Source of the DNA: Rothia mucilaginosa
GTDB lineage: Bacteria; Actinomycetota; Actinomycetes; Actinomycetales; Micrococcaceae
Assembly: GCF_019334805.1 (NCBI RefSeq)
Contig: NZ_CP079822.1
Coordinates: 310,001 to 374,000 of the forward strand
Reading direction: 5' to 3'
DNA length: 64,000 nt
The notes under the pieces: generated by a model
Told to the model about the DNA's origin: nothing
Seen by the model: only the letters and a program-made list of their open reading frames with translations
Database searches by the model: none
Shown: piece by piece, positions 3,545 to 61,018 of the stretch
Layout: each line of letters opens with the position of its first letter
How positions within the stretch are numbered: position 1 is the first letter of the stretch
Made by a program: the position numbers and the translations under genes

Positions 3545-3593
3545 TGCCTCGGGAGTTGCCTCAGGATTTTGCCTCAGGAGTTGTCTCGGGAGC
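3545..3593. repeat. Degenerate 12-13-bp tandem repeat, four copies
   Basis: TGCCTCGGGAGT, TGCCTCAGGATTT, TGCCTCAGGAGT and TGTCTCGGGAGC run head to tail between rnd and the Rieske gene. It belongs to the short 3' intergenic repeats seen throughout the window. Confidence 0.85.
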
Positions 3594-3678
3594 AAACGTG
3601 AACGAAGCTTAGCCTGCTCTCATTCGATTTTTATCCCAAACCGGCATAGTGTGGAGAGAGTACACGAAAGGAACCACC

Positions 3679-4233
3679 ATGCCCGCACCCAACGGATGCT
3701 GCCGCTCTCAGAAGGCATGCGCCTCCCCCACTGCATCTGCCGCCGTCGAATCTAACGCTACCGAATCTAATGCCGTCGACACCGCAGTCGATACCGCAGA
3801 GATTGAATCTTCTGCTCGCGTCTTTTCCCGCCGCGCAACCCTCATCACCGGTGCCGTCGTATCCGGTGCGCTGCTCGCCTCCTGCGCTGAAGGTGACTCC
3901 AACGTCACCGTACCCGAAGGCAGCGTAGAGATGGGCGCCGCCTCCGCCGTGGGCGTAGGCAAGGCGGCTAAGCTGACCCACGGCTCCACGACCGTTATCG
4001 TCTCCCAGCCCTCTTCGGGCGAATACAAGGCGTTCAGCACCGTGTGCACCCACCAGGGTTGTCAGGTGCAGGTGCAGGACTCCAACCGCATCGTGTGCCC
4101 CTGCCACGGTTCCGAGTACGCCGTAGCTGACGGCTCGGTAGTGCACGGCCCTGCGGAGGCGCCTCTGACCAGCTACCCAGTGCAGGTGAAGGGCGGCAAG
4201 ATTTTCGTCACCCACACCAATAAGGATTCCTAA
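3679..4233 (+). CDS. Rieske (2Fe-2S) Tat-exported lipoprotein
   Basis: A 184-aa protein with one Rieske domain. Box 1 is CTHQGC (C123, H125, C128) and box 2 is CPCHGS (C140, C142, H143). That gives ligands C123/H125/C140/H143 and the disulfide C128-C142 by family rule. The N-terminal region has a twin-arginine (R51-R52 in FSRRATL), a hydrophobic stretch and a lipobox LLASC with Cys69, so it should be folded, exported by Tat and lipidated outside the membrane. The 50 residues before the twin arginine are long and include a Cys pair (GCCRS). It has no cytochrome b/c partners nearby, so it is not the bc1 Rieske subunit; the electron partner is unknown. The start at 3679 has GAAAGGAACC upstream. 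Confidence 0.88.
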   Translation: MPAPNGCCRSQKACASPTASAAVESNATESNAVDTAVDTAEIESSARVFSRRATLITGAVVSGALLASCAEGDSNVTVPEGSVEMGAASAVGVGKAAKLTHGSTTVIVSQPSSGEYKAFSTVCTHQGCQVQVQDSNRIVCPCHGSEYAVADGSVVHGPAEAPLTSYPVQVKGGKIFVTHTNKDS

Positions 4234-4260
4234 AACCTGTAGTTCAGAAGACGTACGGCA

Positions 4261-4290
4261 AAGCCCCGCCCATCACAATGGGCGGGGCTT
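4261..4290 (+). terminator. Rho-independent terminator after the Rieske gene
   Basis: A 13-bp perfect stem AAGCCCCGCCCAT / ATGGGCGGGGCTT with a CACA loop, followed by a pyrimidine-rich CTGTCTGTCT. Confidence 0.85.
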
Positions 4291-4308
4291 CTGTCTGTCT
4301 ATACTGTG

Positions 4309-4350
4309 CTTGTCATTGAGCAGCTTGTCATTGAGCGCTTGCTATTGCGG
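4309..4350. repeat. Degenerate 14-15-bp tandem repeat, three copies
   Basis: CTTGTCATTGAGCAG, CTTGTCATTGAGCG and CTTGCTATTGCGG are head to tail in the gap between the Rieske terminator and the end of dxs. Confidence 0.85.
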
Positions 4351-4396
4351 CACGCTACTGAGAGAAGCTCAGGCGGCACATTTCAGGTACGACCGC

Positions 4397-12440: not shown

Positions 12441-12445
12441 AGGAG

Positions 12446-15327: not shown

Positions 15328-15377
15328 CGCGCTTTCGCATACGCGCTTTCACATGCTCAACGGCACATACTCAACGG
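15328..15377. repeat. Two neighbouring 14-bp tandem duplications
   Basis: CGCGCTTTCGCATA / CGCGCTTTCACATG (15328-15355) is overlapped by CACATGCTCAACGG / CACATACTCAACGG (15350-15377). They sit in the gene-free 266-bp stretch between dut and DUF4193, which otherwise holds only a terminator. Confidence 0.8.
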
Positions 15378-17228: not shown

Positions 17229-17294
17229 GGGCATCTAGGCAGTAGCTTCTAGGCAGGGGCTTTAGGCCGGGCTTTAGGCAAGGGCATCTAGACA
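17229..17294. repeat. Degenerate tandem repeat of 12-16-bp units after sepH
   Basis: GGGCATCTAGGCAGTA, GCTTCTAGGCAGG, GGCTTTAGGCCG, GGCTTTAGGCAA and GGGCATCTAGACA follow one another. The shared core is CTWTAGGC or CTAGGC. Confidence 0.7.
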
Positions 17295-18650: not shown

Positions 18651-18665
18651 AGGTTCCTCTCGGGG

Positions 18666-18704
18666 TGTTTATCGGCGGTGCTTATCGGTGCTATTTATCG
18701 GCGG
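18666..18704. repeat. 13-bp tandem repeat, three copies, over the DUF5998 stop codon
   Basis: TGTTTATCGGCGG, TGCTTATCGGTGC and TATTTATCGGCGG are exactly in register. The DUF5998 stop (18695-18697) lies in the third copy; on the minus strand each copy reads as CCGATAA. Confidence 0.85.
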
Positions 18705-19288
18705 GTTGCGTACATGCGGGCACGGTGCAGTGCACGCGCAAAATGCTGCGCACGCTGAACCGACTCCGGGCCGTCAGCGGTTGCAGAAACACGCACTGCA
18801 ATGTCCTCGCGGCGCGCATCGCCGGTGAAGCCGTGGTCGGCATTGCACTGCGGATCCTGGCAACCGGCAGGAGCCAGCTCCATGTGCAGCGAACCGGTCC
18901 AGGCAATCTGGAAGGAAATCTCAGTCGGGGCGGTGCTACCGGCGTTGTACGCCTGCGGCTGGCTGAAACCGTAGCTGATGGTGACCGCGTTCAGGGCGCT
19001 CAGGTGCACCGCCTCCACGCTCACATGCGCCACGGTACCCTGCGCGTCACCCTCAAGGTGCTGGTCGTCCAGGTGCGCAAAGATGACGTGCTCACCGCAG
19101 AGCACCATCACGGTGATGTGGCGGTGAAAATCATCGCGTGAGAAGTGGGTTTCATGCTGTACGAAGTGCGCGTCCGGGTTCATGCCCGCCAGCGCGTCAT
19201 CCACCACTTCCAGCACGAGGTCGGGGTAGAAACCGGCATGCTTAATGTCTGCGACCAGTTGCTCGCGTTCGGGGGTGGTGGCGTACAT
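18695..19288 (-). CDS. DUF5998 protein
   Basis: A 197-aa soluble protein found next to the phosphatase-fold gene in actinobacteria. It begins MYATTPEREQLVADIKHAGFYPDLVLEVVDDALAG, a helical region, followed by a beta-rich part with HRHITVMVLCGEHVIFAHLDD and a CQDPQCNADHGFTGD segment that holds two Cys and a His and may bind metal (inference). The ATG at 19288 has AAAGAGG 5 bases upstream and is preferred over a start at 19339. Function is unknown. Confidence 0.82.
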   Translation of the reverse strand: MYATTPEREQLVADIKHAGFYPDLVLEVVDDALAGMNPDAHFVQHETHFSRDDFHRHITVMVLCGEHVIFAHLDDQHLEGDAQGTVAHVSVEAVHLSALNAVTISYGFSQPQAYNAGSTAPTEISFQIAWTGSLHMELAPAGCQDPQCNADHGFTGDARREDIAVRVSATADGPESVQRAQHFARALHRARMYATRR

Positions 19289-22136: not shown

Positions 22137-22180
22137 ACGAAGCCGGGGAGGACGAAGCAGGGAGCGACGAAGCCGCGAGG
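22137..22180. repeat. 15-bp tandem repeat, three copies, after parC
   Basis: ACGAAGCCGGGGAGG, ACGAAGCAGGGAGCG and ACGAAGCCGCGAGG are in exact register, about 40 bases after the parC stop and before its terminator. Confidence 0.85.
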
Positions 22181-26457: not shown

Positions 26458-28707
26458 CTAGCCGCGCATAGCGTCGGCGGGGCTCTTGCGGGATGCCACC
26501 CACGCCGGGTATGCCGAAGACACCAGACCGGTAAGGGCGCCAACGCCCACGCCGAGCACCACGAATCCGGGTGAGAGAACCGCCTGCCAGCCTTGCACGA
26601 GCGAAAGAATGATGGTCGCAATCATGCCGGAGCAGGCGCCGATGGAGCCGCCGAGCACGCCGAGCATGACGCCCTCCATGAGGAAGATGCGGGCAATCAG
26701 CCATTTACTCGATCCGATGGCGCGGCGCAGCGCAATCTCTGCGGTGCGCGATTGCACGGACAGATACATGGCGGTTGCCGCCGAGAGGGAGGCGAGCACC
26801 AGCAGAATACCGGAGAGCACACCCACGTACAGGCCCAGATCCGAGGCGATAGACGCGCGTAGGCTCTGCAGGTCGGAGGGGGTTTCCACGTTGATCTGGC
26901 TGGGTTCAGCGGGCTTGAGGGTCAGCGGAATTGCCTTGGCGACCGCTTTGCCGTAGCCCCGTTCGGTTTCGGCAATGTATGTGACCTGGCCGCGTCCGGT
27001 GCGCTGAAGTGTGCCCGGCGAGACAATGACCGTGTTCCTAAATTCGTAGCCGCTATTGCCGGGGTCGAAGAGGCCAATGACCGGCATCAGCTGACCTTCC
27101 ACCCAGATGCTCACACCGGGTGCCACCTGCGGCAACCCACCGAGCTTAATGCCGTAGTCGACGGCGGGTAGCTCGCCGGGCCTGGGCTCGGTTGTGGCGT
27201 TATCTGCAGCCTTATCTTCGGGAATAATGCCGAGGGCGCGGGCAGCGGAGACCGACACAATAGCGCCGGAGAGCTGCTCGGAGCGTTCACGGTCGGCAAC
27301 GTTCTGCTGGGTGAGGGTCGCGTTCATCTGTTCGAGCGCACGCAGGGTTTCGGGGTTCATGCGGGCACCGATTTGCTCGAGCCTGGTCTTCGAGGTGGAA
27401 GTGAGTCCAATCGCCGTTTTGGGTTCGTCCTCGTAGGGGCTGAACCGGGTGATTCGCACGTCGGCGGGTGCCACACTGCTGACGAATCCGGTGTTCTTCA
27501 CGTAGTCCAGCGCGCTAATACGGTCGGCTACATTCTGCGCGGATTCGCCCTGCCGGTAGGTTCCGAGCATGTTCTGGTCATTGTCCCTGTCGCTGATGTA
27601 GAGCGTGGACTGTTCGGATCCGAGCAGGCGCTGGTTCACCTGGTAGCTGGCGGATTCGCTCATGCCGGAGGCGCTGATGAGTCCGCCCACGCCCAGTGCG
27701 AAGGACAGGCCCAGCAGCAGGGTGCGTAGCGGTCGGGAGGTGAGCGCAGAGATCGCCTCGATGCTGTCGTCGGTGAGGAAGCTTCCGCGGCGATGCGTAG
27801 CGGGCTTCTCCCCCGGTGCAAGGCTCGCGGAGGCGTCTACCGGGGCACCTACCGTAGCTTCTGCAGGGGTATCCGTTGCAGCCGACACAGCCTCGGCAAC
27901 CGGCACCTCAGCAACCGGCACCGTAGCCGAATCGGTGCGGCTCTGCTCGTGCAGCCGCCCATCCTCAATGCGGATCACGCGGCGGGCGGCGGCGGCAACC
28001 TCCGGGTCGTGGGTAATCACCAGCACGGTACAGCCGGTCGCGTTAATGCGCTGAAGAATCTCAATGACCTTGGCGCTATTGTGGCTGTCCAGGTTGCCGG
28101 TGGGCTCGTCGGCAAGAATCAGCGGCGGGCGCGTGGCGAGGGCACGAGCAATGGCGCAGCGCTGCTTCTCGCCGCCGGAGAGGTAGCGGGTGCGGATGCT
28201 GGCGCGGTCGCTCAACCCCAGAAATTCTAGGGTTTCTTCGGTGCGTTGCAGGCGCTCGCCGTAGGGTACGCCCTGCACGCGCAGGCCCATGGAGGCATTG
28301 GTTGTGCTGGTTTCATCCAGCAGCATGTTTGAGGACTGGAAGATGAAGCCGAGGTGGTCTCGGCGCATTTCGTCGCGTTCTCTGTCGCTGAGTCCTTCCG
28401 TGTTTTTGCCGAAGAGGCTGTAGGTTCCGCTGGTGGGAGTGTCGAGCAGGCCAATGGCGTTGAGCAGGGTGGATTTACCGGAGCCCGACGGACCAATAAT
28501 GGCGAGGAATTCGCCGCGTTCGACCACCAGGTCGAGGTGGTCGAGGACTGCTCGTTCGCTCCCCTCGAAAACACGGGTAATGCCGTGCATTTCGATAGCG
28601 GGCGCGGTACCGAGCCCGGCAGCAGGTGTAGCGGCGGACGCTACGTTGGGCGCAATTGTAGGCGCACGTCCTGGGCTTGTGTCTGGGGTTATCTTACGGC
28701 GGCTCAT
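26458..28707 (-). CDS. MacB-type ABC transporter, fused ATPase and FtsX-like permease
   Basis: A 749-aa single-chain ABC protein. The ATPase covers about residues 35-260: Walker [18 protein letters not shown] signature and [10 protein letters not shown]. An alanine/valine/proline linker leads to one membrane segment near 345, a periplasmic MacB_PCD-like domain, and three FtsX membrane segments at the C-terminus (about 620-745). MacB proteins use mechanotransmission to move substrates from the periplasm or outer leaflet. Its ATG overlaps the adaptor stop by four bases (ATGA), so the two are one translational unit. The substrate (peptide, lipid or antibiotic) cannot be told from sequence. The C-terminal MacB signature ends [11 protein letters not shown]. 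Confidence 0.88.
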
Positions 28708-30848: not shown

Positions 30849-30976
30849 CGTTGAACACCTTTCATAAGAGTGAGTTGCTCACCACATTACACTTTTTGCT
30901 CCTTGCCGCGCTCGAATTTCGGGGGGGGTGTGCACCAAAAATTTTTGCGCGCCCACTCATCTGCCGAGAGCTGCAG

Positions 30977-31022
30977 CCTCTGCGGGAATATCCTCTGTAG
31001 GAATAGTCCTCTGGGGGCATAG
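30977..31022. repeat. 15-16-bp tandem repeat, three copies, between the lipoprotein gene and cydB
   Basis: CCTCTGCGGGAATAT, CCTCTGTAGGAATAGT and CCTCTGGGGGCATAG are in register in the gap, directly before the cydB terminator. Confidence 0.85.
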
Positions 31023-34064: not shown

Positions 34065-34218
34065 TGGTGACAGATTCCTGAATTATGACAGGTGGTTCAA
34101 GCAGTACTCAAAGCTTAAATTTGCCTAAATCATACCAATTTTACTGAAACTTCCAAGAAATAGTGTGACTATTATCATGGAAAAATCATTAAATGTGACA
34201 CGCCAGTCACCACTACCC

Positions 34219-34242
34219 CGCAAGGTACACCGCAAGCTACAT
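34219..34242. repeat. 12-bp tandem duplication over the parE stop codon
   Basis: CGCAAGGTACAC is followed by CGCAAGCTACAT. On the minus strand these are ATGTAGCTTGCG (Met-stop) and GTGTACCTTGCG. Confidence 0.75.
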
Positions 34243-39628: not shown

Positions 39629-39691
39629 CCTAGCCCAGCTCAGATTTAGCCTAGTCCAGCTCAGGCTTCGCCTAATCTAGCTCGGGCTTAG
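39629..39691. repeat. Three 21-bp tandem copies of the MBL-fold gene end
   Basis: Copies start at 39629, 39650 and 39671. The last contains the real stop (39672-39674). In frame on the minus strand they read KPELD-stop, KPELD-stop and KSELG-stop, with synonymous changes in the Leu and Asp codons between the first two. Confidence 0.9.
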
Positions 39692-41762: not shown

Positions 41763-42395
41763 CTATTCTTGCTCGTTTGCCCCGCCATTTGCCCCGCCAA
41801 ATACTCCGCCGGACTTTTCCTCTTCTTCATCGTCCAGCCCGTCGAGCATGGCGAGCATGAGCGAGTCCTGAACCCAGGAGACGAAGTTGTACACCACGGC
41901 CATGTACTCTTCTTGGGTCTCGATCTCGGAAGGGTCGGTGAACGCCGCAATATCTTCTGCGGTGTCTTCGTCCACGATGTAGAGGCGGTCGGCGAGCACC
42001 AAGCGGATATCGCCGAGCGCAGCAGCCCAAGCGCGGGCGTGTTCTTCGTTCAGGCGCAGGTCGCTGGACTCAATGTCGAAGGCGAGCATTGCGAGGTTCG
42101 CGCGTTTAGTTTCGCGCAGGTCGCGTTCGGTATAGCGGCGGTATTCGGTGGCGGCCTCGTCGTCACTGCTTGCGGCGGGTAGCAGGCGTGCTACGGCACT
42201 GTCGGCGGGGATAGTGGGGTTTTCGGTGATGCCGACCAGCGCCTCCAACGGGTCGACGGTGCCGCCGTCGGCGGTGGTATCTGCCGGGCGCAGTAGCGCG
42301 CGCACGTCTTCGGCGAGTTCGCGAATCAGGTCACGTTCGGCGGGTTCGAAGGAGGCGGTGTAGCCTCCGGGGGTGCGGCGGAAGGGTCGCGCCAT
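41763..42395 (-). CDS. DUF2017 protein
   Basis: A 210-aa helical, acidic cytosolic protein of an actinobacterial family always next to clpS. It starts MARPFRRTPGGYTASFEPAERDLIRELAEDVRALL, and the C-terminal half has DIRLVLADRLYIVDED and a VYNFVSWVQDSLMLAML helix. The last 25 residues are Gly/Asn/Glu-rich and not conserved. Its ATG shares one base with the clpS stop (TAATG), so it is translationally coupled to clpS. A role with the Clp protease is suggested by place only. Confidence 0.88.
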   Translation of the reverse strand: MARPFRRTPGGYTASFEPAERDLIRELAEDVRALLRPADTTADGGTVDPLEALVGITENPTIPADSAVARLLPAASSDDEAATEYRRYTERDLRETKRANLAMLAFDIESSDLRLNEEHARAWAAALGDIRLVLADRLYIVDEDTAEDIAAFTDPSEIETQEEYMAVVYNFVSWVQDSLMLAMLDGLDDEEEEKSGGVFGGANGGANEQE

Positions 42396-44316: not shown

Positions 44317-44943
44317 ATGTCTAAGGCACTGATTATTGTTGACGTGCAGAACGATTTCTGCGCCGGCGGCACCCTCGCCACCGAGCGCGGTGCGGACGTT
44401 GCCGCACTGATTAGCGAATACGTGGAGAACAACCACCACCGCTACGACGCGATTATTGCCACCCAGGACTGGCATATCGATCCGGGCTCGCACTTCTCTG
44501 ACACCCCCGACTACGTTGACTCCTGGCCGGTGCACTGCGTCGCCAAGAGCGAAGGCTCGCAGATTCACGAGAACCTGGACACCGACTACATTGAGGCGTA
44601 CTTCCGCAAGGGCCGCTTCGAGGCAGCCTACTCGGGTTTTGAGGGTCTTCTCGCCCCTGAGGATGAGGTCGCAACCGGCGAGCACGAGCCTGGTGCGGAT
44701 GCGTCCGAGGACGGTCCGCAGACTCCCCTGTCGGAGTGGCTGGATGAGCGCGGTATCGAGTTCGTCGATGTTGTCGGTATCGCCACCGATTATTGCGTGT
44801 CGGCAACCGCTCGCGATGCGGTCGATGCAGGCTACGAGACTCGCGTGCTGCTTGACCTGACCGCGCCCGTGCACGAGGACAAGCTCGACGACGTGGTTGC
44901 CGAGCTTGAAGATGAGGGCGTCGAGGTGGTTGAGGTTCTCTAA
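44317..44943 (+). CDS. pncA: Nicotinamidase (isochorismatase-like)
   Basis: A 208-aa amidase that converts nicotinamide to nicotinate, the substrate of PncB next door. The catalytic triad is D9 (VDVQNDF), K98 (FRKGR) and C160 (ATDYCVSATA). The metal site is D51, H53 and H59 in QDWHIDPGSHF. An insertion (about residues 112-136, acidic) is longer than in short PncA proteins. AAAGGACAG precedes the ATG. By family precedent it would also activate pyrazinamide (not tested). Confidence 0.95.
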   Translation: MSKALIIVDVQNDFCAGGTLATERGADVAALISEYVENNHHRYDAIIATQDWHIDPGSHFSDTPDYVDSWPVHCVAKSEGSQIHENLDTDYIEAYFRKGRFEAAYSGFEGLLAPEDEVATGEHEPGADASEDGPQTPLSEWLDERGIEFVDVVGIATDYCVSATARDAVDAGYETRVLLDLTAPVHEDKLDDVVAELEDEGVEVVEVL

Positions 44944-44961
44944 CCTCGACCTTGAATAGAC

Positions 44962-45018
44962 AGAGGCGGGGAGCCTGGGATGTACTATCGGATGTACTAT
45001 CCCGGACTCCTCGCCTCT
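44962..45018 (+). terminator. Large hairpin after pncA
   Basis: A 12-bp stem AGAGGCGGGGAG / CTCCTCGCCTCT with an inner GGGAT/ATCCC stem. GATGTACTATC occurs twice in the loop. There is only a weak T-tail. Confidence 0.65.
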
Positions 45019-45024
45019 TGCTGT

Positions 45025-45089
45025 ACCGATAACTTAGCGCACCGATAACTTACTGCGCCGATGACTTAGCGTGCCTACGACTCATCGTG
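45025..45089. repeat. 16-17-bp tandem repeat, four copies
   Basis: ACCGATAACTTAGCGC, ACCGATAACTTACTGCG, CCGATGACTTAGCGTG and CCTACGACTCATCGTG are head to tail and increasingly diverged. Confidence 0.8.
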
Positions 45090-45103
45090 TAATACCCCCG
45101 AAT

Positions 45104-45139
45104 AGCCGAGGCCACTTAGTCAGCCGAGCCGCTTACTTG
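45104..45139. repeat. 18-bp tandem duplication at the end of the remnant gene
   Basis: AGCCGAGGCCACTTAGTC is followed by AGCCGAGCCGCTTACTTG. The second copy contains the stop of the remnant gene on the minus strand. Confidence 0.75.
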
Positions 45140-45250
45140 AAGCACACCTCTGCCATGCCGTTCACGCGCACGTTCGGGCCAGCCGGCGCCTCCGGTGAGG
45201 ATGGTGCGGCGGGTGGGGTGTGCATTGTGTGGCATGAGGTTTTCTTTCAT
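45133..45250 (-). pseudogene. Remnant of a Tat-exported protein gene (signal peptide joined to C-terminus)
   Basis: The minus strand begins MKENLMPHNAHPTRRTILTGGAGW, a twin-arginine signal start. One frame over, the sequence reads GPNVRVNGMAEVCFK and stops at 45133. Its final cysteine near the end resembles the ends of the two glycine-rich proteins in this region (VYLCAV, VFLCQVGK). It looks like an internal deletion that removed nearly the whole mature part. Inference only; it could also be chance. Confidence 0.4.
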
Positions 45251-45386
45251 GAGGGTTGAGATGGATGAACAATTTACACATTTATGCACTGTGTGCAATA
45301 TTCATTTTCTAGAGTATAGACACCGAAAAACATTCTCAACTCACCACGCCATGACCTCGCTCAACCCAGCATTTTCGGGCGCAAAA

Positions 45387-45419
45387 AAGCCCGCGAGCGC
45401 ATACACGCCCGCGGGGCTT
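45387..45419 (-). terminator. Terminator of the first glycine-rich protein gene
   Basis: AAGCCCGCG / CGCGGGGCTT with one bulge; on the minus strand it is followed by six T. It has the shared loop text GAGCGCAYAC also found at 47156-48667 (split) and 50409-50438. Confidence 0.8.
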
Positions 45420-45470
45420 TCTCCCTTATCCAAAGGTATTTACGTGCTTATCTTGGTCAGGAAAGGTTGG

Positions 45471-46892
45471 TTATACCGCACAAAGATACACCGTCGCGGT
45501 GCCACCTTCACCATACTGCGAGCCTTTGTGTGCATTATTTGCCCGAGAAATTTCACCTTCAAGAACGCTCGGCGCCAGGTAAGACCCACCCGCACCACCT
45601 GCACCGGCAAGCTGCGCGGAGCTGATACTCTGGCGAACACCCGTCGGGTTATTATTCCATTTCTGAGCGATTGTAATCGCTGACTGCGAGAGTGCCGCGC
45701 CCGAACCGCCACCGCCGTAACCGCCGCCGCCGCCACCGGACACAATGACCTGCGCGCCGTTGAAGTAAGGGGCGAGATGATAGTAGGACAGATATTTATG
45801 GGTTCCATCGGGGCGTTGGAGAGTTTCATAGCTTTCCGCATTGAACCCATCGTGGTTATCCAACTGGTAGCTTACAGACATCACGCCGTCGCCACCATTT
45901 CCTTGCAGACCATTAGTACCGGGATTACCTGCGGTCGAGGAGCTATAAAGCACCTGCTTATTCTGACTATCAAAGCTAAAAATACTGTTGGGAGTACCGG
46001 TCAACACTGTCGGCTTAGCACCACCGGCACCACCGATACCATTACCGCCGCCCTTGCCACCTTCAACAGTTAGCTGAATGTTCGGGTCCTGAGCATAATA
46101 TTCACGTCCAATTGTGGCGTCACCACCGCGTGCTCGTTCCCCCGACCCTCCAACACTGCGTACGGGCGGGTGGGTCTGGTTTTCCGGCCCAATCATACGA
46201 GCGTCGACAATTCCAGGGAAATGGTCCGGGTCAGGTTCCGTCGTGAACATTGTTGCCCGGGTGACTCCACCGCCACCGCCGCCAGCAACAGCGATGACCT
46301 CACCGTTGATGAGCAGAGCCGAGGAACCGCCGCCCGAGCATCCATATATCTCTTCCATAGGTTGTTTAGGATGCGGACCGTGATCCCAATCAGTAGCCCA
46401 CACCCAGCGCTTGGTTAGCTTCTTCATCACGTCATCGGGAATCCTGGTGCGAGGAACCCCACCACCGTTACCGAAACCTTGGCCACCTTGGGAGCCTTCA
46501 GTCCGGTACTCATCTAAATTGTCAGCTCCGTACCCTCGGACTTCGAGCATACCGCCGCCACCTGCAATGAGCTCGATATTTGCCGGACCCTGCACCCCGA
46601 TAACTCCGGTTACTTTCGCTCCTGAGCCGCCGAGAGAGCTGTCGTCAAAGCCTCCGCCACCTGCACCACCGGTCAGTTCAAAACGGATCTTATAGAAGGT
46701 AAGGCGGCTATGAAGATATTCCGTTTCTTCCCTGCGGTTATACATGTCAGCGTGGGCATACATGTAAGGTTCTTCTGACACGGTGCAATCCGGTTTTGAT
46801 GCAGCGTAAGCTGGCACTACTGCTGAAGCCGCAATCACGGGCGTTGCCCAGGCGGCACCCTTCACGACCTTACGGCGAGAAATATGAGACAT
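45471..46892 (-). CDS. Tat-exported glycine-rich protein, paralog 1
   Basis: A 473-aa exported protein of unknown function. The Tat signal is MSHISRRKVVKGAAWATPVIAASAVVPAYA. The mature part has repeated glycine-rich beta segments (FELTGGAGGGGF, ELIAGGGGML, VSGGGGGGYGGGGSGAALS, LAGAGGAGGSYLAP) and three conserved Cys: DCT at the mature start, YGCSGGGSSALLI in the middle, YLCAV at the end. The first and last could close the fold by a disulfide. There is no sortase motif and no membrane anchor, so it is secreted or wall-associated non-covalently. It is 60-65 percent alike by eye to the paralog at 48717-50144. AAGGACA precedes the ATG at 46892. Confidence 0.8.
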   Translation of the reverse strand: MSHISRRKVVKGAAWATPVIAASAVVPAYAASKPDCTVSEEPYMYAHADMYNRREETEYLHSRLTFYKIRFELTGGAGGGGFDDSSLGGSGAKVTGVIGVQGPANIELIAGGGGMLEVRGYGADNLDEYRTEGSQGGQGFGNGGGVPRTRIPDDVMKKLTKRWVWATDWDHGPHPKQPMEEIYGCSGGGSSALLINGEVIAVAGGGGGGVTRATMFTTEPDPDHFPGIVDARMIGPENQTHPPVRSVGGSGERARGGDATIGREYYAQDPNIQLTVEGGKGGGNGIGGAGGAKPTVLTGTPNSIFSFDSQNKQVLYSSSTAGNPGTNGLQGNGGDGVMSVSYQLDNHDGFNAESYETLQRPDGTHKYLSYYHLAPYFNGAQVIVSGGGGGGYGGGGSGAALSQSAITIAQKWNNNPTGVRQSISSAQLAGAGGAGGSYLAPSVLEGEISRANNAHKGSQYGEGGTATVYLCAV

Positions 46893-47052
46893 CACTGTCC
46901 TTCAATGGTTGGTGCAACCGTTCTTCTAACCCATTTCTCGCACTCGGCTCGGCAGAATAACGGCTACATGGTGTTTCTGATGGAGACCCTCCCGTAATGG
47001 CAACCCCGCCAGGTTCGAGAGGGATCTTCCACCAATAGAGTACATGAATCAG

Positions 47053-47083
47053 GTTTTATGGACACCCCAAAAGGTCATAAAAC
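47053..47083. repeat. Inverted repeat GTTTTATG / CATAAAAC
   Basis: 8-bp perfect arms (47053-47060, 47076-47083) with a 15-base loop in the gene-free stretch between the first glycine-rich gene and the IS. The rest of 46893-47155 holds no gene that I can support; the promoter of the glycine-rich gene should be there. Confidence 0.5.
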
Positions 47084-47155
47084 AGCACGTCGAACCAATT
47101 TTATACCCGTCTTGTAGCTGTCCGGCAATCTATTTCATAAGTTCAGGGCACGCAA

Positions 47156-47172
47156 AAACCCCGCGAGCGCAC
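47156..47172. terminator. Left half of an IS-split terminator (partner 48649-48667)
   Basis: AAACCCCGCG plus the loop start AGCGCAC. Together with ACACCCGCGGGGCTTT at 48652-48667, after removal of the IS and one CAC copy, it restores the same hairpin that stands intact at 50409-50438. Confidence 0.8.
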
Positions 47173-47213
47173 TGAACTGCGCCCCGAAACTTGGACGCTT
47201 TAAATAGTAACCC

Positions 47214-48074
47214 TTATGCGGCTTCCAGCAGGGCCTGATCCCGGTACTCTACCGGAGTCAGGCCCTTAAGCTTTACCTGACGCCTTACTGTATTCCAGTG
47301 CATGATATAGGCATCAAGGTCGGCCTTGAAACTCTCAAAGGTCTGCCAGTCTTGGCCGCGGAAGAACTCGTCCTTCAGATGTCCAAAAACCTGCTCAGTG
47401 GCGCCATTATCAATACAGTTGCCCTTGCGTGACATACTCTGGATAAAACCATTCTCAGCAAGCGTGCTGATATAGAACTCGTGCTGATACTGCCACCCCA
47501 TATCCGAGTGCAAAATCGGTTCAACCCCTGCGGGTTTGGCCTCCATGAGTACCTGGAGCATCTCTTGTTGCTGGAGGAGGTTAGGGCACATCGAGATCGA
47601 GTGGGCAACAATCTCTTTGCTAGCAAAGTCGTAAACCGGAGCGAGATACGCCTTACCAAAGGAGAGCTTAAACTCGGTAACATCGGTACCCAACTTCTGC
47701 CAGGGACCGGTCGCCGTGAAGTTGCGACCAATGACGTTCTCAAAACTTTGCCCCACGTCCCCCTTATAGGAGTTGTACCTACGGTAGGGCCTCTGGCGGC
47801 GTATACCGCAACGCAACCCCATCTGACGCATCATCTTCAAAACCGTCTTATCGGCAATGCGCACCCCTTCCTCAGCGCGCAGGCACATAGCCACCTGCCT
47901 GTGACCACACCCGTTGGGGGTTCGCGAAAAGATCTGTGTGACCTTGGGACGTAGCTGCACTCTGGTTGGCTGCCGGGGATGAGCCAACGCGTAGTAGTAG
48001 CTCGACCTGGCAAGACCAGCAGCTTCGAGCAGATCACGCACCGCGTGTCCGCGCCCTGAAAGCTCAGCGACCAC
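47214..48074 (-). CDS. IS3-family transposase OrfB (DDE catalytic part)
   Basis: A 286-aa integrase-core protein. An HTH_21-like start (HAVRDLLEAAGLARSSYYYAL) is followed by the DDE triad: GTDVTEF (D), HSDMGWQYQ (D) and NGATEQVFGHLKDE (E). The frame is open upstream of its GTG start (48072-48074) back to the A7 run at 48125-48131, so the active product is most likely OrfAB made by -1 frameshifting. The GTG overlaps the orfA stop by one base, which allows a separate OrfB as well. Confidence 0.93.
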   Translation of the reverse strand: MVAELSGRGHAVRDLLEAAGLARSSYYYALAHPRQPTRVQLRPKVTQIFSRTPNGCGHRQVAMCLRAEEGVRIADKTVLKMMRQMGLRCGIRRQRPYRRYNSYKGDVGQSFENVIGRNFTATGPWQKLGTDVTEFKLSFGKAYLAPVYDFASKEIVAHSISMCPNLLQQQEMLQVLMEAKPAGVEPILHSDMGWQYQHEFYISTLAENGFIQSMSRKGNCIDNGATEQVFGHLKDEFFRGQDWQTFESFKADLDAYIMHWNTVRRQVKLKGLTPVEYRDQALLEAA

Positions 48075-48589
48075 TAGGGCTTTGTCCCGGTTTGGGAGCG
48101 CCTGTGCGCCTTCAGGGCAATCGATTTTTTTAGGTACGCCACCTGCGCCTCAAGCTTGCGCACACGCTCGGCAAGTTCCTCCTCACGCGTTGGTGGTACC
48201 GCCCCCGCACCTAATCCCTTTGGCCTGCCCTTGGGCTTAGGCTTAAGCGCCTGCGCGCCGCCTTCACGGTACAGCCTGCACCATTGCTTCAACGGTGTCG
48301 CGCTTGCAATGCCGAAACGCACCATTGCCTCGGGCTTACTCATTCCACCGTCAACCACGGCCTTGGCTGCGGCGACTTTGGTCTCGTAGTCGTATTTGGT
48401 GTGTTTTATTCCCATGGTAAGAAGCCCGTCCTTCCCGATGACGTGGTACGTTTTCTGCCACTCTCTCACAGTTGCGGCGGACACACCAAGCTTCCTGGCG
48501 GTTAGACCATAGCCGAATCCTCTCTCAAACATCAGTGCTGCTTGCTCCCGGAGCAAACGATCGTGTCTCATTCCTAGATTTATAGGCAT
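48074..48589 (-). CDS. IS3-family transposase OrfA (HTH and leucine-zipper part)
   Basis: A 171-aa DNA-binding protein. Two helix-turn-helix units are visible (GYGLTARKLGVSAATVREWQK and MSKPEAMVRFGIASATPLKQWCR), then a basic PKPKGRPKG stretch and a coiled coil (EEELAERVRKLEAQVAYLKKSIAL, about residues 135-160) used for multimerisation. The Shine-Dalgarno sequence GGGAGG before the ATG lies inside a hairpin (see 48596-48641). Frameshifting to OrfB would occur in the LKK codons near residue 155. Confidence 0.9.
   Translation of the reverse strand: MPINLGMRHDRLLREQAALMFERGFGYGLTARKLGVSAATVREWQKTYHVIGKDGLLTMGIKHTKYDYETKVAAAKAVVDGGMSKPEAMVRFGIASATPLKQWCRLYREGGAQALKPKPKGRPKGLGAGAVPPTREEELAERVRKLEAQVAYLKKSIALKAHRRSQTGTKP
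48125..48131 (-). other. A7 slippery site for -1 programmed frameshift, OrfA to OrfAB
   Basis: On the minus strand C-CTA-AAA-AAA-TCG (LKKS) can slip back by one base, which gives LKKIDCPEG and leads without a stop into OrfB. Confidence 0.7.
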
Positions 48590-48595
48590 GAAAAG

Positions 48596-48641
48596 CCTCC
48601 CGTTTCTTGGACTTTATTTTTGGTGTCCAAGAAACGGGAGG
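48596..48641 (-). promoter_or_regulatory. 17-bp perfect hairpin at the transposase-proximal IS end, sequestering the orfA ribosome site
   Basis: CCTCCCGTTTCTTGGAC (48596-48612) and GTCCAAGAAACGGGAGG (48625-48641), 12-base loop. On the minus strand the second arm ends GGGAGG-CTTTTC-ATG, so the Shine-Dalgarno sequence is in the stem. Transcripts that enter from outside would hide it; the CTTTT tail may also terminate them. Confidence 0.75.
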
Positions 48642-48716
48642 CAGTTCACACACACCCGCGGGGCTTTACTGGCAACCGAATCAATTCATCTCCGGCACCC
48701 TTCAAATATTGGTTAT

Positions 48717-52467: not shown

Positions 52468-52535
52468 GCGTATTGTCTGAGGTGTGTTGCCTGATGCGTA
52501 TTTGTCTCAGGCGTGTCGCCTGGCGCGTATTACTC
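52468..52535. repeat. 28-29-bp tandem repeat reaching over the DUF3039 stop codon
   Basis: Units begin GCGTATT at 52468, 52496 and 52525; the first two also share GTCT, AGG, GTGT and GCCTG. The third is the coding end with the stop at 52530-52532. CAGGCG / CGCCTG pairs allow small hairpins. It fills most of the 280-bp gap, which otherwise has no gene. Confidence 0.75.
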
Positions 52536-52829
52536 GCCGGAGCCGTTGTCACCGTCGTTGCCCGGTGCCAGGCCTTCGTAGATTTCCTTGCACTGGGGGC
52601 AGACGGGGAACTTCTGCGGGTCGCGGCCGGGTACCCACATTTTGCCGCAGAGGGCACGTACAGGTTCACCGGTCAGCGCCGATTCGAGGATCTTTTCCTT
52701 GCGTACATAGTGGGAGAAGCGCTCGTGGTCGCCGGGTTCAGAAAGCTGGGTTTCTTCGCGTTCGAGCAGGGCGGTGCCGCCTGCGGTTCCGGGGCCAAAG
52801 GGGTCTTCGATGCCTTCGATCGAGCTCAT
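52530..52829 (-). CDS. DUF3039 protein
   Basis: A 99-aa actinobacterial protein. The core HERFSHYVRKEKILESALTGEPVRALCGKMWVPGRDPQKFPVCPQCKEIYE has three Cys (ALCGK, CPQC) and a histidine that can make a zinc site. The ATG at 52829 (MSSIEGIEDPFGPG) has AAGGAG upstream and is preferred to the longer frame. It is upstream of the helicase in the same direction, a conserved pair. Function unknown. Confidence 0.88.
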   Translation of the reverse strand: MSSIEGIEDPFGPGTAGGTALLEREETQLSEPGDHERFSHYVRKEKILESALTGEPVRALCGKMWVPGRDPQKFPVCPQCKEIYEGLAPGNDGDNGSGE

Positions 52830-53056
52830 GTTTCTCCTTGATGATGAGGTGGGATACATAGGGTGAGGGGTGCCGCTGCACGGTTGGGTGATTGGCGCCT
52901 TCTCTATTTTAGTAGCAGTTGGGAGGTGCCGAGCCCCCGGGCGGTCAATATGGAGGCAGGCCACAGCTCAACCATAGACTCTTAGGTATTGCGGTGAGCT
53001 TCTTTCCGCTAGAAGTTCGGGGCTAGAATTTCGGGCGGCATAGAAGCATAGAAAAG

Positions 53057-55996: not shown

Positions 55997-56076
55997 CCGT
56001 ATTCAACGTTTCAGCCGCCTAGATTAGCCAGAGCTAGCTAGACCGGCTCATGATGTTTCCCGGGTGACAGCTATTT

Positions 56077-57396: not shown

Positions 57397-58683
57397 ATGA
57401 GCGAGAAGAAACCCTCAGCAGCTCCCGAAGAGACGACATCGTCCTCCGAGACACGCAAGAAGGAATCCCTCACCGATCAGCTAACGGAGACCTTCAGCGA
57501 GATAACCGAGAGCATTAGCCAGGTGCGTTCCAAGCGCCGCCGCGCGTCCATGCCTCCTACAGATACCATTCCGGTGGTCCCCTCCGCTTCTGAGGATGCG
57601 CCTCCCGCACCGAAGGTGGTCGGCAACGGCAAGACCTCGATGATGCATAACCCGGTCGCTTTTGGTTTCCTCATGACCGTGGGCGTGGGTCTGGCGCTCT
57701 TCGCCTACTACATTTTCAATAATGTAGGTGCCCTGGTGGGTTGGGTGACCGGCGCTATTTTCATTGCTCTGGGTCTGGACCCGATTGTGCGCCGCCTGGA
57801 GTCTTGGGGCATTAAGCGCGGTATCGGCGTGATTGCTGTGCTTGCTGGTTTTGCTGGCGCTGTGACCGGCCTGGTCATGACGATTGGCCCGGTCATTAGC
57901 GAGCAGGCGTCTAAGTTTGTTCAGTACGCGCCGGGTATTTATCAGAACACGATTGATTCTGATTGGTACCACGAGCTTGATCAGCGTTTTGACATCAGCA
58001 CCTGGGTGAATGAGAACGTCCCGAAGTTCTTGGAGTCGACGTTCTCTTCGTCGCAGGTCAATAGCTTCATGTCGAGCCTGGTTTCTGCGGGTTCTACCCT
58101 GGCGCAGAGCGTGACCGGCGTGATTATTGTGCTGTTCCTGTCCCTGTACTTCCTCACATCGATGGACACGATTAAGGCGTGGGGTGTGCGTCTGGCGCCG
58201 GCGTCTAAGCGTGTGCGCGTCAAGTACATTACCGACAAGATTACTGAGTCGGTGGGTAACTACGTGATGGGTCAGGCGATGGTAGCCATTCTGAACGCCC
58301 TCTTCGCATTCTTCATAATGTTGTTCTTGGGCTTTAGCTTCCCGCAGTTGATGGCTTTGGTCGTTATGATTCTGGCGTTCATTCCGCTGGTTGGTGGCGT
58401 GATTGCGCTGATTTTGACCTCGCTGATTCTGCTGACTCAGGACTGGAGTCTGGCGCTGTGGTTTGCGGTGGCGTACTTCCTGTACTTGCAGGTGGAGGCG
58501 TACCTGATTTCTCCACGTATTATGGCTCGCGCTGTCTCGGTTCCTGCCGGTGTTGCGATTATTTCGGTGGCTGCCGGTGGCGCGCTCTGGGGCGTGCTGG
58601 GTGCGCTGATTGCTATTCCGGTGGCAGCTTCCATGCTGATTCTGGTGCGTGAGGTGTTCATTCCTCGCCAAGATCAGCTGTAG
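57397..58683 (+). CDS. AI-2E family transporter (PF01594)
   Basis: A 428-aa membrane protein with a soluble charged N-terminal 90 residues and about eight hydrophobic segments. Family features are GAIFIALGLDPIVRRLESWGIKRGIGV, the long extracellular stretch about 165-225, and VVMILAFIPLVGGVIALILTSLILL near the C-terminus. AI-2 export is a historical label; many members are Na+/H+ antiporters, so the substrate is open. GGAAAGGAAG precedes the ATG. A TAGAAT box (57344-57349) may be its -10. The stop codon is inside a tandem repeat. Confidence 0.87.
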   Translation: MSEKKPSAAPEETTSSSETRKKESLTDQLTETFSEITESISQVRSKRRRASMPPTDTIPVVPSASEDAPPAPKVVGNGKTSMMHNPVAFGFLMTVGVGLALFAYYIFNNVGALVGWVTGAIFIALGLDPIVRRLESWGIKRGIGVIAVLAGFAGAVTGLVMTIGPVISEQASKFVQYAPGIYQNTIDSDWYHELDQRFDISTWVNENVPKFLESTFSSSQVNSFMSSLVSAGSTLAQSVTGVIIVLFLSLYFLTSMDTIKAWGVRLAPASKRVRVKYITDKITESVGNYVMGQAMVAILNALFAFFIMLFLGFSFPQLMALVVMILAFIPLVGGVIALILTSLILLTQDWSLALWFAVAYFLYLQVEAYLISPRIMARAVSVPAGVAIISVAAGGALWGVLGALIAIPVAASMLILVREVFIPRQDQL

Positions 58684-58742
58684 TCACCTCCCAGCTGTAG
58701 TCACCTCCCAGCTGTAGTCACCTCCCAACTGCAGTCATTTCT
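58675..58742. repeat. 17-bp tandem repeat, four copies, including the stop codon
   Basis: CAGCTGTAGTCACCTCC stands at 58675, 58692 and 58709 without change, and a fourth diverged copy starts at 58726. The first copy codes Gln-Leu-stop of the AI-2E transporter. Confidence 0.95.
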
Positions 58743-58793
58743 AGGTTCTCTACGCGTTCCCTGTTTCTTCCACCGAGCAGGCATTTAAGACAA

Positions 58794-58834
58794 AAGGCGG
58801 CGGCTTTGGATGTTCTATCCAAAGCCGCCGCCTT
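58794..58834. terminator. Bidirectional terminator, 17-bp perfect stem
   Basis: AAGGCGGCGGCTTTGGA / TCCAAAGCCGCCGCCTT with a 7-base loop, AAAA before and TAATATTTTT after. It serves the convergent transporter and hydrolase genes. Confidence 0.93.
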
Positions 58835-58867
58835 AATATTTTTACGCAGTATTTTTATGCCGAACCT

Positions 58868-59686: not shown

Positions 59687-59722
59687 TGCGTTCCTTCAAG
59701 AATTGGATTCGAGAATGTGGAC

Positions 59723-59750
59723 TAGGGTCTAGGGTCTTGGGTCTTGGGCT
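59723..59750. repeat. 7-bp microsatellite, four copies
   Basis: TAGGGTC, TAGGGTC, TTGGGTC and TTGGGCT, between the hydrolase start and the zinc-ligand protein end. Confidence 0.85.
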
Positions 59751-59773
59751 GCACTTTAAGTGCAGTGTTCAGC

Positions 59774-60100
59774 CTATTTACGGCGGGTGCGCCAGCAATG
59801 CTGATGCCAGTGCCTGCGCTCATCAATGGCGCGGCTACGGCCCATCGTGTGGCTTTCTTGCCACACCACCAGATGCGCTGTTCTGGGCGGAATCGGGCGG
59901 TAGCATTCGGGGCAGGTGTAGGTTTTTTGGGCGTTGACGGCTGCAATGTATTGCACCAGCCAGTCACCGTATCGGTCACGTTCCAGTCGGGGCGCTGGGT
60001 CGAGAATCCTGCTGATATCACGCCCTGCGGGTGCTTGACGGTGCCACTTATCGCTGGTGGTGCCGGATGCTCGCCTGCCGGGATGATTCTTACGTGCCAT
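59774..60100 (-). CDS. Small putative zinc-binding protein
   Basis: A 108-aa basic protein. CPECYRPIPPRTAHLVVW carries a CxxC pair, and RRHWHQHCWRTRRK carries His/Cys ligands near the end, so one zinc site of the type CxxC-H-C is likely. A similar short protein is found next to nucS in many actinobacteria, where databases often name it ATP/GTP-binding without evidence. It may bind nucleic acid, given its many Arg and Lys residues. No ribosome site stands out at the ATG. Confidence 0.7.
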   Translation of the reverse strand: MARKNHPGRRASGTTSDKWHRQAPAGRDISRILDPAPRLERDRYGDWLVQYIAAVNAQKTYTCPECYRPIPPRTAHLVVWQESHTMGRSRAIDERRHWHQHCWRTRRK

Positions 60101-60274
60101 GAGCCCTATTCTACCGCGCCACTCAGCTATCTCTACCTACCGGCTCTGCCGCTGTTCGCTCTGCGCTCTTCCTCATTCTGAGGCGGTACTCCCCCGCTCT
60201 GTAACCCAACCTGTACCAAGCACGGGTTCCCTAGCTCATACCCTCACCTGCTAGAGCCAAACACTCGTACCTGC

Positions 60275-60280
60275 TAGAGT
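60275..60280 (+). promoter_or_regulatory. -10 element (TAGAGT) for a leaderless nucS transcript
   Basis: TAGAGT ends six bases before the ATG at 60287 with no Shine-Dalgarno sequence. The 11-mer ACCTGCTAGAG occurs here and 24 bases upstream, so the box may be duplicated. Confidence 0.45.
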
Positions 60281-60286
60281 AGACGG

Positions 60287-61000
60287 ATGCGTATTGTCAT
60301 TGCTGAATGCTCCGTAGATTATGAGGGCCGCCTCCGCGCCCACCTGCCCCGCGCTACCCGCCTGCTGATGGTCAAGAATGACGGCTCCGTCCTCATTCAC
60401 TCCGACGGCGGTTCTTACAAGCCTCTGAACTGGATGAGCCCTCCCTGCTCCCTGCTGGTGGCTGAGCGTGAGGACGTTCCGCAGAGCATCCGTGAGGACC
60501 TGGAGTCTGATGTTCAGCAGCTGTGGACCGTTCAGGCGGCTAAGAGCGATGACCGCCTCATGATTCGTATCTACAAGATTGAGCACGAGTACACCACCGA
60601 CCTGGGTGTTGACCCCGGCCTCATTAAGGACGGTGTGGAGGCTGATCTGCAGCGTCTGCTTGCCGAACAGATCCACACTCTCGGTGAGGGCTATTCGCTG
60701 GTGCGCCGCGAGTACCCGACCGCTATCGGTCCGGTAGACATCATGGCGAAGGATGCGCACGGCGTCTCCGTGGCGGTCGAGCTCAAGCGTGTGGGCGATA
60801 TTGACGGTGTGGAGCAGCTGACCCGTTACCTGGAGCTGCTCAACCGTGACCCGCTGCTGGCACCGGTGCGCGGCGTGTTTGCGGCACAGACGATTAAGCC
60901 GCAGGCTCGTACCCTGGCTGAGGACCGCGGTATCCGCTGCGTGAGCCTGGACTACGACGCGATGCGCGGCGTGGACGATTCGGCTGACCGCCTGTTCTAG
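60287..61000 (+). CDS. nucS: Mismatch-specific endonuclease NucS (EndoMS)
   Basis: A 237-aa nuclease that replaces MutS/MutL in actinobacteria. It cuts both strands at G-T, G-G and T-T mispairs. The N-terminal DNA-binding/dimer domain (1-115) is followed by a RecB-like domain with [21 protein letters not shown] (the D-ExK site, about 150-170) and [13 protein letters not shown] (QxxxY). The C-terminus ends ADRLF, which resembles the sliding-clamp-binding tail reported for NucS. The ATG fits a leaderless start. It faces the ATP synthase genes, as in many actinobacteria. Confidence 0.94.
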
Positions 61001-61018
61001 CTGACCGGCCTGTTCTAA
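60984..61018. repeat. 17/18-bp tandem duplication of the nucS coding end
   Basis: CTGACCGCCTGTTCTAG (coding ADRLF-stop) is followed by CTGACCGGCCTGTTCTAA, which keeps LF-stop. More TCTAGCTAAGCGG-like echoes follow. Confidence 0.85.

What the first reader, a model, noticed from the sequence alone, without database searches (positions are those of the whole stretch)
3545..61018. Short degenerate tandem duplications recur at gene 3' ends and often copy the stop codon
Unrelated tandem repeats with units of 7-29 bp and 2-4 copies lie in most 3' intergenic gaps: 3545, 4309, 12395, 15328, 15429, 17229, 17352, 18666, 22137, 30977, 34219, 38089, 39629, 45025, 45104, 52468, 58675, 59723 and 60984. At nine or more the stop codon is within the repeated unit (DUF4193, phosphatase-fold gene, DUF5998, parE, rdgB, MBL, DUF3039, AI-2E transporter, nucS). 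The unit sequence differs each time, so this is not a dispersed repeat family but a process: repeated local slippage with later drift, tolerated or favoured just after coding ends. It supplies backup stops and spacer length before terminators. I do not know a description of this as a genome trait.
Basis: seen in the sequence. Interest (0 to 1): 0.75.

Follow-up and report, generated by a model that had tools for sequence, protein, structure and literature searches.

The report
Short DNA stutters after bacterial genes
In the mouth bacterium Rothia mucilaginosa and its closest kin, short stretches of roughly 9 to 19 DNA letters are repeatedly doubled and kept wherever this does little harm, most visibly just past gene ends, while most sampled relatives of the same genus hardly do this at all.

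Summary
In 464 kb of this genome (Rothia mucilaginosa complex), 251 intergenic gaps hold 73 short tandem arrays; shuffled gaps give 1-2. A stop codon lies wholly inside an array at 24 of 305 genes, a start codon at 1. "A process, not a repeat family" is supported: units are unrelated and arrays differ between close strains (13 duplication gains, 3 losses, 5 undecided). Placement needs no targeting: array coverage follows divergence (rho 0.84), which peaks just after stops. The backup-stop idea fails (in-frame second stop 12 of 24 with an array, 137 of 280 without).

New here: density is about 20-fold that of congeners G001 and G010 and 30-fold that of five other Rothia together. Duplications also occur in frame inside genes. 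Exact ones clearly exceed chance only from 9 bp up, with no end homology above chance. G001 and G010 also lack MutS and have NucS, so missing indel repair alone cannot explain the contrast; no Rothia searched has Ku. Best reading: a lineage-specific duplication bias plus weak selection; the enzyme is unknown. Two other Rothia and several high-GC actinobacteria also have many arrays, so density itself is not unique.

The parts
3545..3592 (.). 12-bp unit x3.9 array in a tandem gap, 74 bp after a stop
   Evidence: G009 and G020 carry diverged versions of other length
4308..4341 (.). 15-bp unit x2.4 array in a convergent gap
   Evidence: one copy in G009
15328..15377 (.). two adjoining 14-bp duplications in a tandem gap, 3' side
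   Evidence: absent from both G009 and G020
17234..17291 (.). 14-bp unit x4.4 degenerate array in a convergent gap
   Evidence: shorter in G009
18660..18704 (.). 13-bp unit x3.5 array that contains the stop of the gene at 18695-19288 (-)
22137..22175 (.). 15-bp unit x2.6 array in a convergent gap; a terminator-like hairpin follows (by eye)
30977..31022 (.). 16-bp unit x2.9 array beside a terminator-like hairpin (by eye)
   Evidence: one copy in G020, poorly alignable patch in G009
34213..34241 (.). 12-bp unit x2.4 array containing the stop of 34237-36339 (-)
   Evidence: also present in G020
39629..39691 (.). 21-bp unit x3 array containing the stop of 39672-40565 (-)
   Evidence: reduced in G009, similar in G020
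44978..45071 (.). exact 12-bp duplication and a 16-bp unit x2.9 array after the stop of 44317-44943 (+)
   Evidence: the 12-bp duplication is also in G009
52468..52531 (.). 29-bp unit x2.2 array reaching 2 bases into the stop of 52530-52829 (-)
   Evidence: one copy in G009, G020 and L046
53008..53035 (.). 14-bp duplication, 97 bp after a stop
   Evidence: shared with G009, single in G020
58675..58737 (.). 17-bp unit x3.7 array containing the stop of 57397-58683 (+)
   Evidence: fewer copies in G009, G020 and L046
59722..59748 (.). 7-bp unit x3.9 array in a divergent gap (5' side, not a 3' end)
60983..61017 (.). 18-bp unit x2 array containing the stop of nucS, 60287-61000 (+)
   Evidence: one copy in G020 and L046; NucS family match at G000 370635-370988 = window 60635-60988
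27891..27922 (.). 15-bp duplication inside a called gene, in frame
   Evidence: single copy in G009 and G020, scored as a gain here
41776..41799 (.). exact 12-bp duplication inside a called gene, in frame
   Evidence: single copy in G009 and G020, scored as a gain here

Best explanation
These arrays are the standing trace of a lineage-specific mutational bias in the Rothia mucilaginosa complex. Some step in DNA maintenance makes tandem duplications of about 9-19 bp, at many positions and without using matching bases at the ends. Selection then removes most of those that break frames or regulatory DNA. In-frame ones survive in genes, and those in weakly constrained DNA survive between genes, above all in the first tens of bases after stop codons and in convergent gaps, so the stop codon is often copied passively. 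Some doubled units expand to 3-4 copies or contract again by ordinary slippage; copies that pick up point changes persist as degenerate arrays. Shown here: the excess, its lineage pattern in the sampled stretches, the strain differences, the unit sizes, the lack of end homology above chance, and the match of placement to divergence. Supported by few events: that gains outnumber losses. Inferred: that the seeding event is a staggered pair of nicks about 9-19 nt apart, filled in and rejoined (duplication with no end homology). Not Ku-dependent joining, since Ku was not found. The responsible enzyme or lost function is unknown.
For: Excess over shuffles: 75 against 1.05 arrays. Lineage: 73 in 58.1 kb of gaps (G000), 54 in 48.5 kb (G009), 19 in 21.9 kb (G020), 6 in 7.9 kb (G101), against 2 in 37.8 kb (G001) and 2 in 29.0 kb (G010): G000 is 21-fold above those two, p 6e-20; 31-fold above 1 in 24.8 kb in G003, G021, G007, G013 and G022 together, p 1e-10. 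Gene-caller-free check, arrays with period not divisible by 3 per 100 kb: 19.2, 16.2, 12.5 and 8.2 in the four members, 3.2 and 3.2 in G001 and G010, 0 to 2.5 in those five congeners. In-frame coding arrays 2.75 per 10 kb in G000 against 0.54 and 0.61 in G001 and G010. Strain turnover. Polarised duplication events: 13 gains, 3 losses, 5 undecided. Exact duplications of 9 bp or more: 27 in G000, G009 and G020 together, about 1 expected. Periodicity running 2 or more bases past two copies in 5 of 21 exact and 10 of 54 one-mismatch two-copy arrays with units of 11 bp or more, chance 16%. Placement follows divergence, rho 0.84 over 16 bins, 0.70 over the 12 non-coding bins. Ku in 0 of 35 Rothia.
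Against: Two of ten other Rothia sampled also have many arrays (G019 5 in 4.3 kb, G017 2 in 3.1 kb); frame-free densities are 10.0 and 7.5 in these, and also 7.5 in G006. Several high-GC actinobacteria reach similar densities. So the trait may have several origins or be ancestral and lost. Exact copies are a minority (10 of 73 arrays in G000 at 100% match; one exact duplication of 9 bp or more in 23.7 kb of G020): many arrays are old or diverged, so ends may have been blurred. Short units are not wholly flat: in G009, 68 exact 5-bp duplications against 52.1 expected and 5 of 7 bp against 1.9. Strict duplications are only 19 of 283 non-coding and 15 of 147 coding indels of 5-60 bp against G009. 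The gain excess is weak evidence: two of the 13 gains are 6-bp events near chance, the outgroup state was judged by length alone, and other non-coding indels also lean to insertion, 20 against 6. The contrast in end homology with other actinobacteria holds for exact arrays (11 of 14) but not for one-mismatch arrays (2 of 18). No gene explains the lineage pattern.
Confidence: 0.55

Rival explanations
1. Ordinary replication slippage between short direct repeats, left uncorrected because actinobacteria mostly lack MutS/MutL and NucS does not repair indels; the Rothia mucilaginosa complex simply slips more.
For: MutS_V found in 1 of 39 genomes (G000 and 38 relatives), not in G000, G009 or G020; NucS family matched in 25 of 26 genomes tested, 24 over the cut-off; a review says EndoMS/NucS is unable to correct indels (PMC8228993, passages seen). 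High-GC actinobacteria also have many arrays, and exact arrays of ten other actinobacteria do show end homology, 11 of 14. Copy-number change within arrays here looks like slippage.
Against: G001 and G010 share the MutS-negative, NucS-positive state but have about 20 times fewer arrays. Little excess of 5-8 bp exact duplications and no end homology above chance in this lineage.
Confidence: 0.25
2. Selection keeps the repeats because they act at gene ends: backup stop codons, spacing before terminators, or RNA stability.
For: 24 of 305 stops lie inside arrays, about twice the 11.9 expected from average non-coding coverage; 18 of 254 against 8.4 in G009, 3 of 108 against 2.6 in G020. Convergent gaps are densest in G000, G009 and G020.
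Against: In-frame second stop 12 of 24 against 137 of 280; period divisible by three in 5 of 24. Arrays vary between strains and are often absent. Coverage follows divergence. No link to hairpin stems or to codon bias of the upstream gene, 35 against 206 genes, p 0.53.
Confidence: 0.05
3. Footprints of a mobile element: insertion makes a target-site duplication of variable length and excision leaves the two copies in tandem.
For: Unit size and lack of end homology are what target-site duplications look like.
Against: Of 16 large length differences (80 bp or more) between G000 and G009, one has boundary repeats in the 11-17 bp range (13 bp); the others have 2-9 or 23 bp or more. No boundary motif is apparent by eye in 32 exact duplications (listed). 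Arrays of 3-4 copies need another step.
Confidence: 0.07
4. Out-of-register recombination between diverged alleles taken up from other strains, so that one copy comes from the donor and one from the recipient; this would explain why even strain-specific copies differ.
For: In a few strain-specific duplications the two copies resemble alleles of two different strains, for example at window 40658 and at L031 5301 and 16536, where G009 has the extra copy (read by eye).
Against: No statistical test was made; a past deletion between two diverged copies gives the same picture; only four related strains were available.
Confidence: 0.08

Closest known systems
[quoted passage not shown] known to me from memory and from its citation in PMC2654908, not read)
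   Same: Short insertions that are tandem copies of the neighbouring sequence, spread over unrelated sites.
   Different: A eukaryote, where end joining uses Ku (recalled); here a bacterium in which Ku was not found, a narrower size range, and a strong difference between species of one genus.
Excess of close direct repeats and 6-11 bp tandem repeats in prokaryotic intergenic DNA (survey PMC4060949, passages seen)
   Different: The passages I saw do not treat position relative to stops, strain turnover, end homology or Rothia.
Slipped-strand contingency repeats and VNTR loci, including MIRU loci of mycobacteria that overlap stop codons (recalled)
   Same: Tandem arrays whose copy number differs between strains, some overlapping a stop codon.
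   Different: MIRUs are a dispersed family with related units (recalled); here no unit is shared between many sites.

Membership tests
Dispersed repeat family (MIRU/REP-like) | Shared unit sequence at many sites | tested here: not met
   No dominant shared 8-mer or 6-mer in 3' regions of G000; the commonest 8-mer occurs 12 times in 30 kb
Classical slippage duplications | Matching bases (2 or more) at the duplication ends | tested here: not met
   5 of 21 exact and 10 of 54 one-mismatch two-copy arrays, chance 16%; three multi-copy exact arrays set aside
Classical slippage duplications | Shortest units most in excess | tested here: not met
   Exact 5-8 bp duplications 208 against 188.8 expected in G000, G009 and G020 together (some excess at 5 and 7 bp in G009); 9 bp or more 27 against about 1 (sums)
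VNTR / copy-number variable loci | Copy number differs between strains | tested here: met
   Window alignments with G009, G020 and L046
Ku-dependent end-joining duplications | Ku present | tested here: not met
   0 of 35 Rothia genomes match PF02735; the control found B. subtilis
Backup stop codons | Repeat adds an in-frame stop | tested here: not met
   12 of 24 against 137 of 280 in G000, 10 of 18 against 126 of 234 in G009
Target-site duplications of a mobile element | An element between the copies in some strain | tested here: inconclusive
   16 large length differences against G009 examined, one with repeats of fitting size

The most novel reading that the evidence does not exclude
The Rothia mucilaginosa complex carries a derived mutational process that makes 9-19 bp tandem duplications with no end homology and without Ku, for example by filling in and rejoining staggered nicks. 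It is a bacterial counterpart of the homology-free short tandem duplications of eukaryotes, switched on or off between sister species.
Probability: 0.3. Interest if true: 0.75.

Novelty: new variant of a known kind. Interest (0 to 1): 0.5.

Why it matters
A 20-30-fold difference in one class of repeats between species of one genus points to a gained or lost step in DNA maintenance that could be mapped. It gives a naturally occurring system to ask how short duplications arise in bacteria in which neither MutS nor Ku is found. It also warns that repeats at gene ends need not be regulatory, and offers ready strain markers. The in-frame duplications in genes are a source of protein length variation.

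Tried and rejected
Hairpin proximity of collapsed array sites (no difference). Codon bias of the upstream gene as an expression proxy for transcription- or gyrase-linked damage (no difference). Shared motif search. Large insertions with fitting target-site duplications. Repair genes as the cause: DinB-type polymerase (16 Rothia), SbcD (16 Rothia), PolA 5' nuclease domain (34 of 35; the miss, G016, is 65% complete), exonuclease VII (15 of 15) and RecG (15 of 15, all below that model's cut-off) are matched in the complete Rothia genomes searched, so presence or absence of these does not explain the pattern. G101 was not. My first indel census used a cruder duplication test and was replaced. In one search I entered a wrong 2x2 table for end homology; one search redoes it. 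One search stopped on a script error after its first part; the rest was rerun, and repeats the position test with arrays and 15 bp around them masked.

Rows dropped before counts: gaps under 30 or over 700 bp (270 gaps of 30 bp or more in G000, 251 kept); 70 indels without a usable outgroup or partner anchor; low-complexity units; multi-copy arrays in the end-homology counts (3 exact in the complex, 3 exact and 3 one-mismatch in other actinobacteria). One search compared ten of thirteen other actinobacteria; G049, G074 and G063 were left out (one search had shown no such array with units of 11 bp or more in them or in E. coli). Gene calls are from a simple home-made caller, not an annotation. 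It leaves a 2,270 bp hole at 44944-47213, where ORF listing shows a 474-aa frame, and an 852 bp hole at 47865-48716. G001 seems to hold frame errors (its coding share is low), so G010 is the safer comparison.

Papers: PMC8228993, PMC2654908 and PMC4060949 seen as passages; all others as search listings only. Not finding the trait in print rests.
Full report
Setting. The window is G000 contig 1, 310001-374000, of a 2.28-Mb single-contig genome. Close relatives are G009 (about 94% nucleotide identity over the window), G020 (about 92%) and L046 (about 88%). I call these four the R. mucilaginosa complex. I analysed 464 kb of G000, 400 kb of G009, 160 kb of G020 and 61 kb of G101; for comparison, 280 kb each of congeners G001 and G010, 40-80 kb each of eight further Rothia, 40-80 kb each of thirteen other actinobacteria, and 80 kb of E. 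coli K-12.

The observation. TRF finds 14 of the 19 listed sites at score 40 or more. Over 251 intergenic gaps of 30-700 bp the genome sample holds 75 arrays of score 40 or more; 20 dinucleotide shuffles of each gap give 1.05 on average. With periods under 6 left out it is 73 against about 1.8. At score 50 or more it is 39 against about 0.1. Arrays are densest in convergent gaps (20.4 per 10 kb), then tandem (12.2), then divergent (8.4) in G000; 13.3, 12.1 and 6.7 in G009; 21.4, 6.3 and 5.6 in G020. A stop codon lies wholly inside an array at 24 of 305 genes (11.9 expected from mean non-coding coverage), a start codon at 1 of 305; in G009 18 of 254 (8.4 expected) and 0; in G020 3 of 108 (2.6 expected) and 0; in G001 0 of 215 and G010 0 of 208 stops. 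A separate test that needs no array finder asks whether the stop and its surroundings recur 7-30 bp downstream: 21 of 249 stops at score 10 or more against 0.1 with shuffled 3' DNA, 17 of 204 in G009, 3 of 87 in G020, 0 of 162 in G001, 0 of 135 in G010.

A trait of a lineage. Array density in gaps is 12.6, 11.1, 8.7 and 7.6 per 10 kb in the four members of the complex, and 0.5 and 0.7 in G001 and G010. Five further Rothia (G003, G021, G007, G013, G022) give 1 array in 24.8 kb. Three others differ: G017 2 in 3.1 kb, G019 5 in 4.3 kb, G006 1 in 4.9 kb. G+C content does not explain the contrast: the stretches of G003, G013, G021 and G022 have 60-61% G+C, as those of G000 do. High-GC actinobacteria reach about 12 per 10 kb or more (G025, G034, G060, G083, in 2-6 kb of gaps each), with a higher shuffled background of 1.2-2.9; E. 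coli has 0 in 6.5 kb. A measure that needs no gene calls, arrays with a period not divisible by three, gives 19.2, 16.2, 12.5 and 8.2 per 100 kb in the complex against 3.2 in G001 and G010, 0-2.5 in the five low congeners, and 7.5, 10.0 and 7.5 in G017, G019 and G006. Inside genes, in-frame arrays are also about five times commoner: 101 in 368 kb of G000 against 11 in 205 kb and 14 in 229 kb of G001 and G010. The process is therefore genome-wide, and the 3' ends are where it shows most.

It is ongoing. Alignments of 16 window gaps with G009, G020 and L046, where these could be placed, show by eye that most arrays have different copy numbers, or no second copy, in at least one relative; the array at 34213 is shared with G020 and that at 53008 with G009. 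Between G000 and G009, 19 of 283 non-coding and 15 of 147 coding indels of 5-60 bp are tandem duplications at 85% identity or more, against 1 and 0 at random places. Their lengths are 8-15 bp in non-coding DNA and 9, 12, 15 or 18 bp in genes. With G020 as outgroup, duplication events at 80% identity or more split into 13 gains (4 non-coding, 9 coding), 3 losses and 5 undecided. This is a small set: two gains are 6-bp events near chance, the outgroup was judged by length, and other non-coding indels also lean to insertion (20 against 6, 32 undecided; coding 9 against 6, 6 undecided). Strict duplications are a minority of all indels, and I do not claim otherwise.

Signature. Exact two-copy duplications of 5-8 bp occur about as often as in first-order simulations in G000 (71, 17, 4, 2 observed; 63.5, 17.2, 5.2, 1.0 expected) and G020 (22, 3, 3, 0; 22.3, 6.2, 2.2, 0.5); G009 has some excess (68, 12, 5, 1; 52.1, 15.6, 1.9, 1.1). 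Units of 9 bp or more are in clear excess: 27 in the three genomes (13, 13 and 1) against about 1. 32 distinct exact duplications with units of 9 bp or more were listed from the four genomes, units 9-19 bp. If duplications arose by mispairing between short repeats, the periodicity should run on past two full copies. In the complex it runs on by 2 or more bases in 5 of 21 exact and 10 of 54 one-mismatch two-copy arrays with units of 11 bp or more; chance is 16%. Two of the five run on by 7-8 bases. In ten other actinobacteria it does so in 11 of 14 exact arrays (Fisher p 0.002) but in only 2 of 18 one-mismatch arrays, so the contrast rests on the exact ones. No motif is apparent at the boundaries (read by eye).

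Why gene ends. Array coverage and substitution divergence between G000 and G009, measured outside arrays and 15 bp around them, go together over 16 position bins (Spearman 0.84) and over the 12 non-coding bins alone (0.70). Both are highest 0-25 bp after stops (divergence 9.5%, coverage 11.4%) and low in the 25 bp before starts (3.3%, 1.5%). The simplest reading is tolerance: the first bases after a stop are the freest of the bins measured. The stop is copied because it lies at the edge of that free zone. The copies do not serve as backup stops, and I found no link to hairpins or to codon bias of the upstream gene.

Mechanism. Shown: excess, lineage pattern, turnover, size range, lack of end homology above chance, placement that follows divergence. 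Inferred: the seeding step. MutS_V was found in 1 of 39 genomes, G000 and 38 relatives; the one is G022, in a 213-aa frame. NucS was matched in 25 of 26 genomes, all 13 Rothia tested among them; NucS is reported not to correct indels (PMC8228993, passages). That may make the whole group permissive, but G001 and G010, with few arrays, share it. Ku was found in none of 35 Rothia. The repair genes I searched (DinB type, SbcD, PolA 5' nuclease, exonuclease VII, RecG) do not separate the complex from its congeners by presence. Homology-free doubling of a narrow size range is what filling in and rejoining of staggered nicks would give; I hold that step at low confidence. Later copy-number change within arrays looks like ordinary slippage, and many arrays have diverged copies (10 of 73 in G000 and 12 of 54 in G009 at 100% match), either from age or because exact copies are lost again.

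Comparison with what is known. Excess of close direct repeats between genes is known for many prokaryotes, and some genomes have extreme 6-11 bp tandem repeats there (PMC4060949, passages). Copy-number variable arrays are well known, and stop-overlapping MIRU units in mycobacteria are recalled. That many recent short human insertions are tandem duplications is cited in PMC2654908 (passages). I found no description of this trait in Rothia or of a species-level switch in such duplications in the searches; that library lacks most subscription papers. I file it as a new variant of a known kind.

Noticed in passing
window 3545-3600 and 30960-31010: Short hypervariable intergenic patches: flanks nearly identical between strains, but G009 hard to align inside, next to or within degenerate arrays.
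   Followed up: partly
G000:C1:2054387-2056309 (RecG): The RecG match is split at profile position 462/463 by about 38-40 extra residues in G000, G009 and G020, but not split in G101 or G010; possibly an in-frame expansion.
   Followed up: no
window 866-917: G009 carries 2,524 bp more than this genome between these positions, with boundary repeats of only 2 bp.
   Followed up: no
L030 11121-12138: About 1 kb present here and absent from G009, with a 32-bp direct repeat at its edges.
   Followed up: no
window 44944-48716: Region where my gene caller found little although a 474-aa frame exists; it holds a CCG-type array.
   Followed up: no
G022:C1:776651-777067: One Rothia genome has a MutS_V-family match over the cut-off in a 213-aa frame, unlike the other Rothia in that search.
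   Followed up: no
all sampled G000 coding sequence: In-frame tandem arrays inside genes, mostly of 9-18 bp units, are about five times commoner than in G001 and G010, so protein length variation may be unusually common in this complex.
   Followed up: partly
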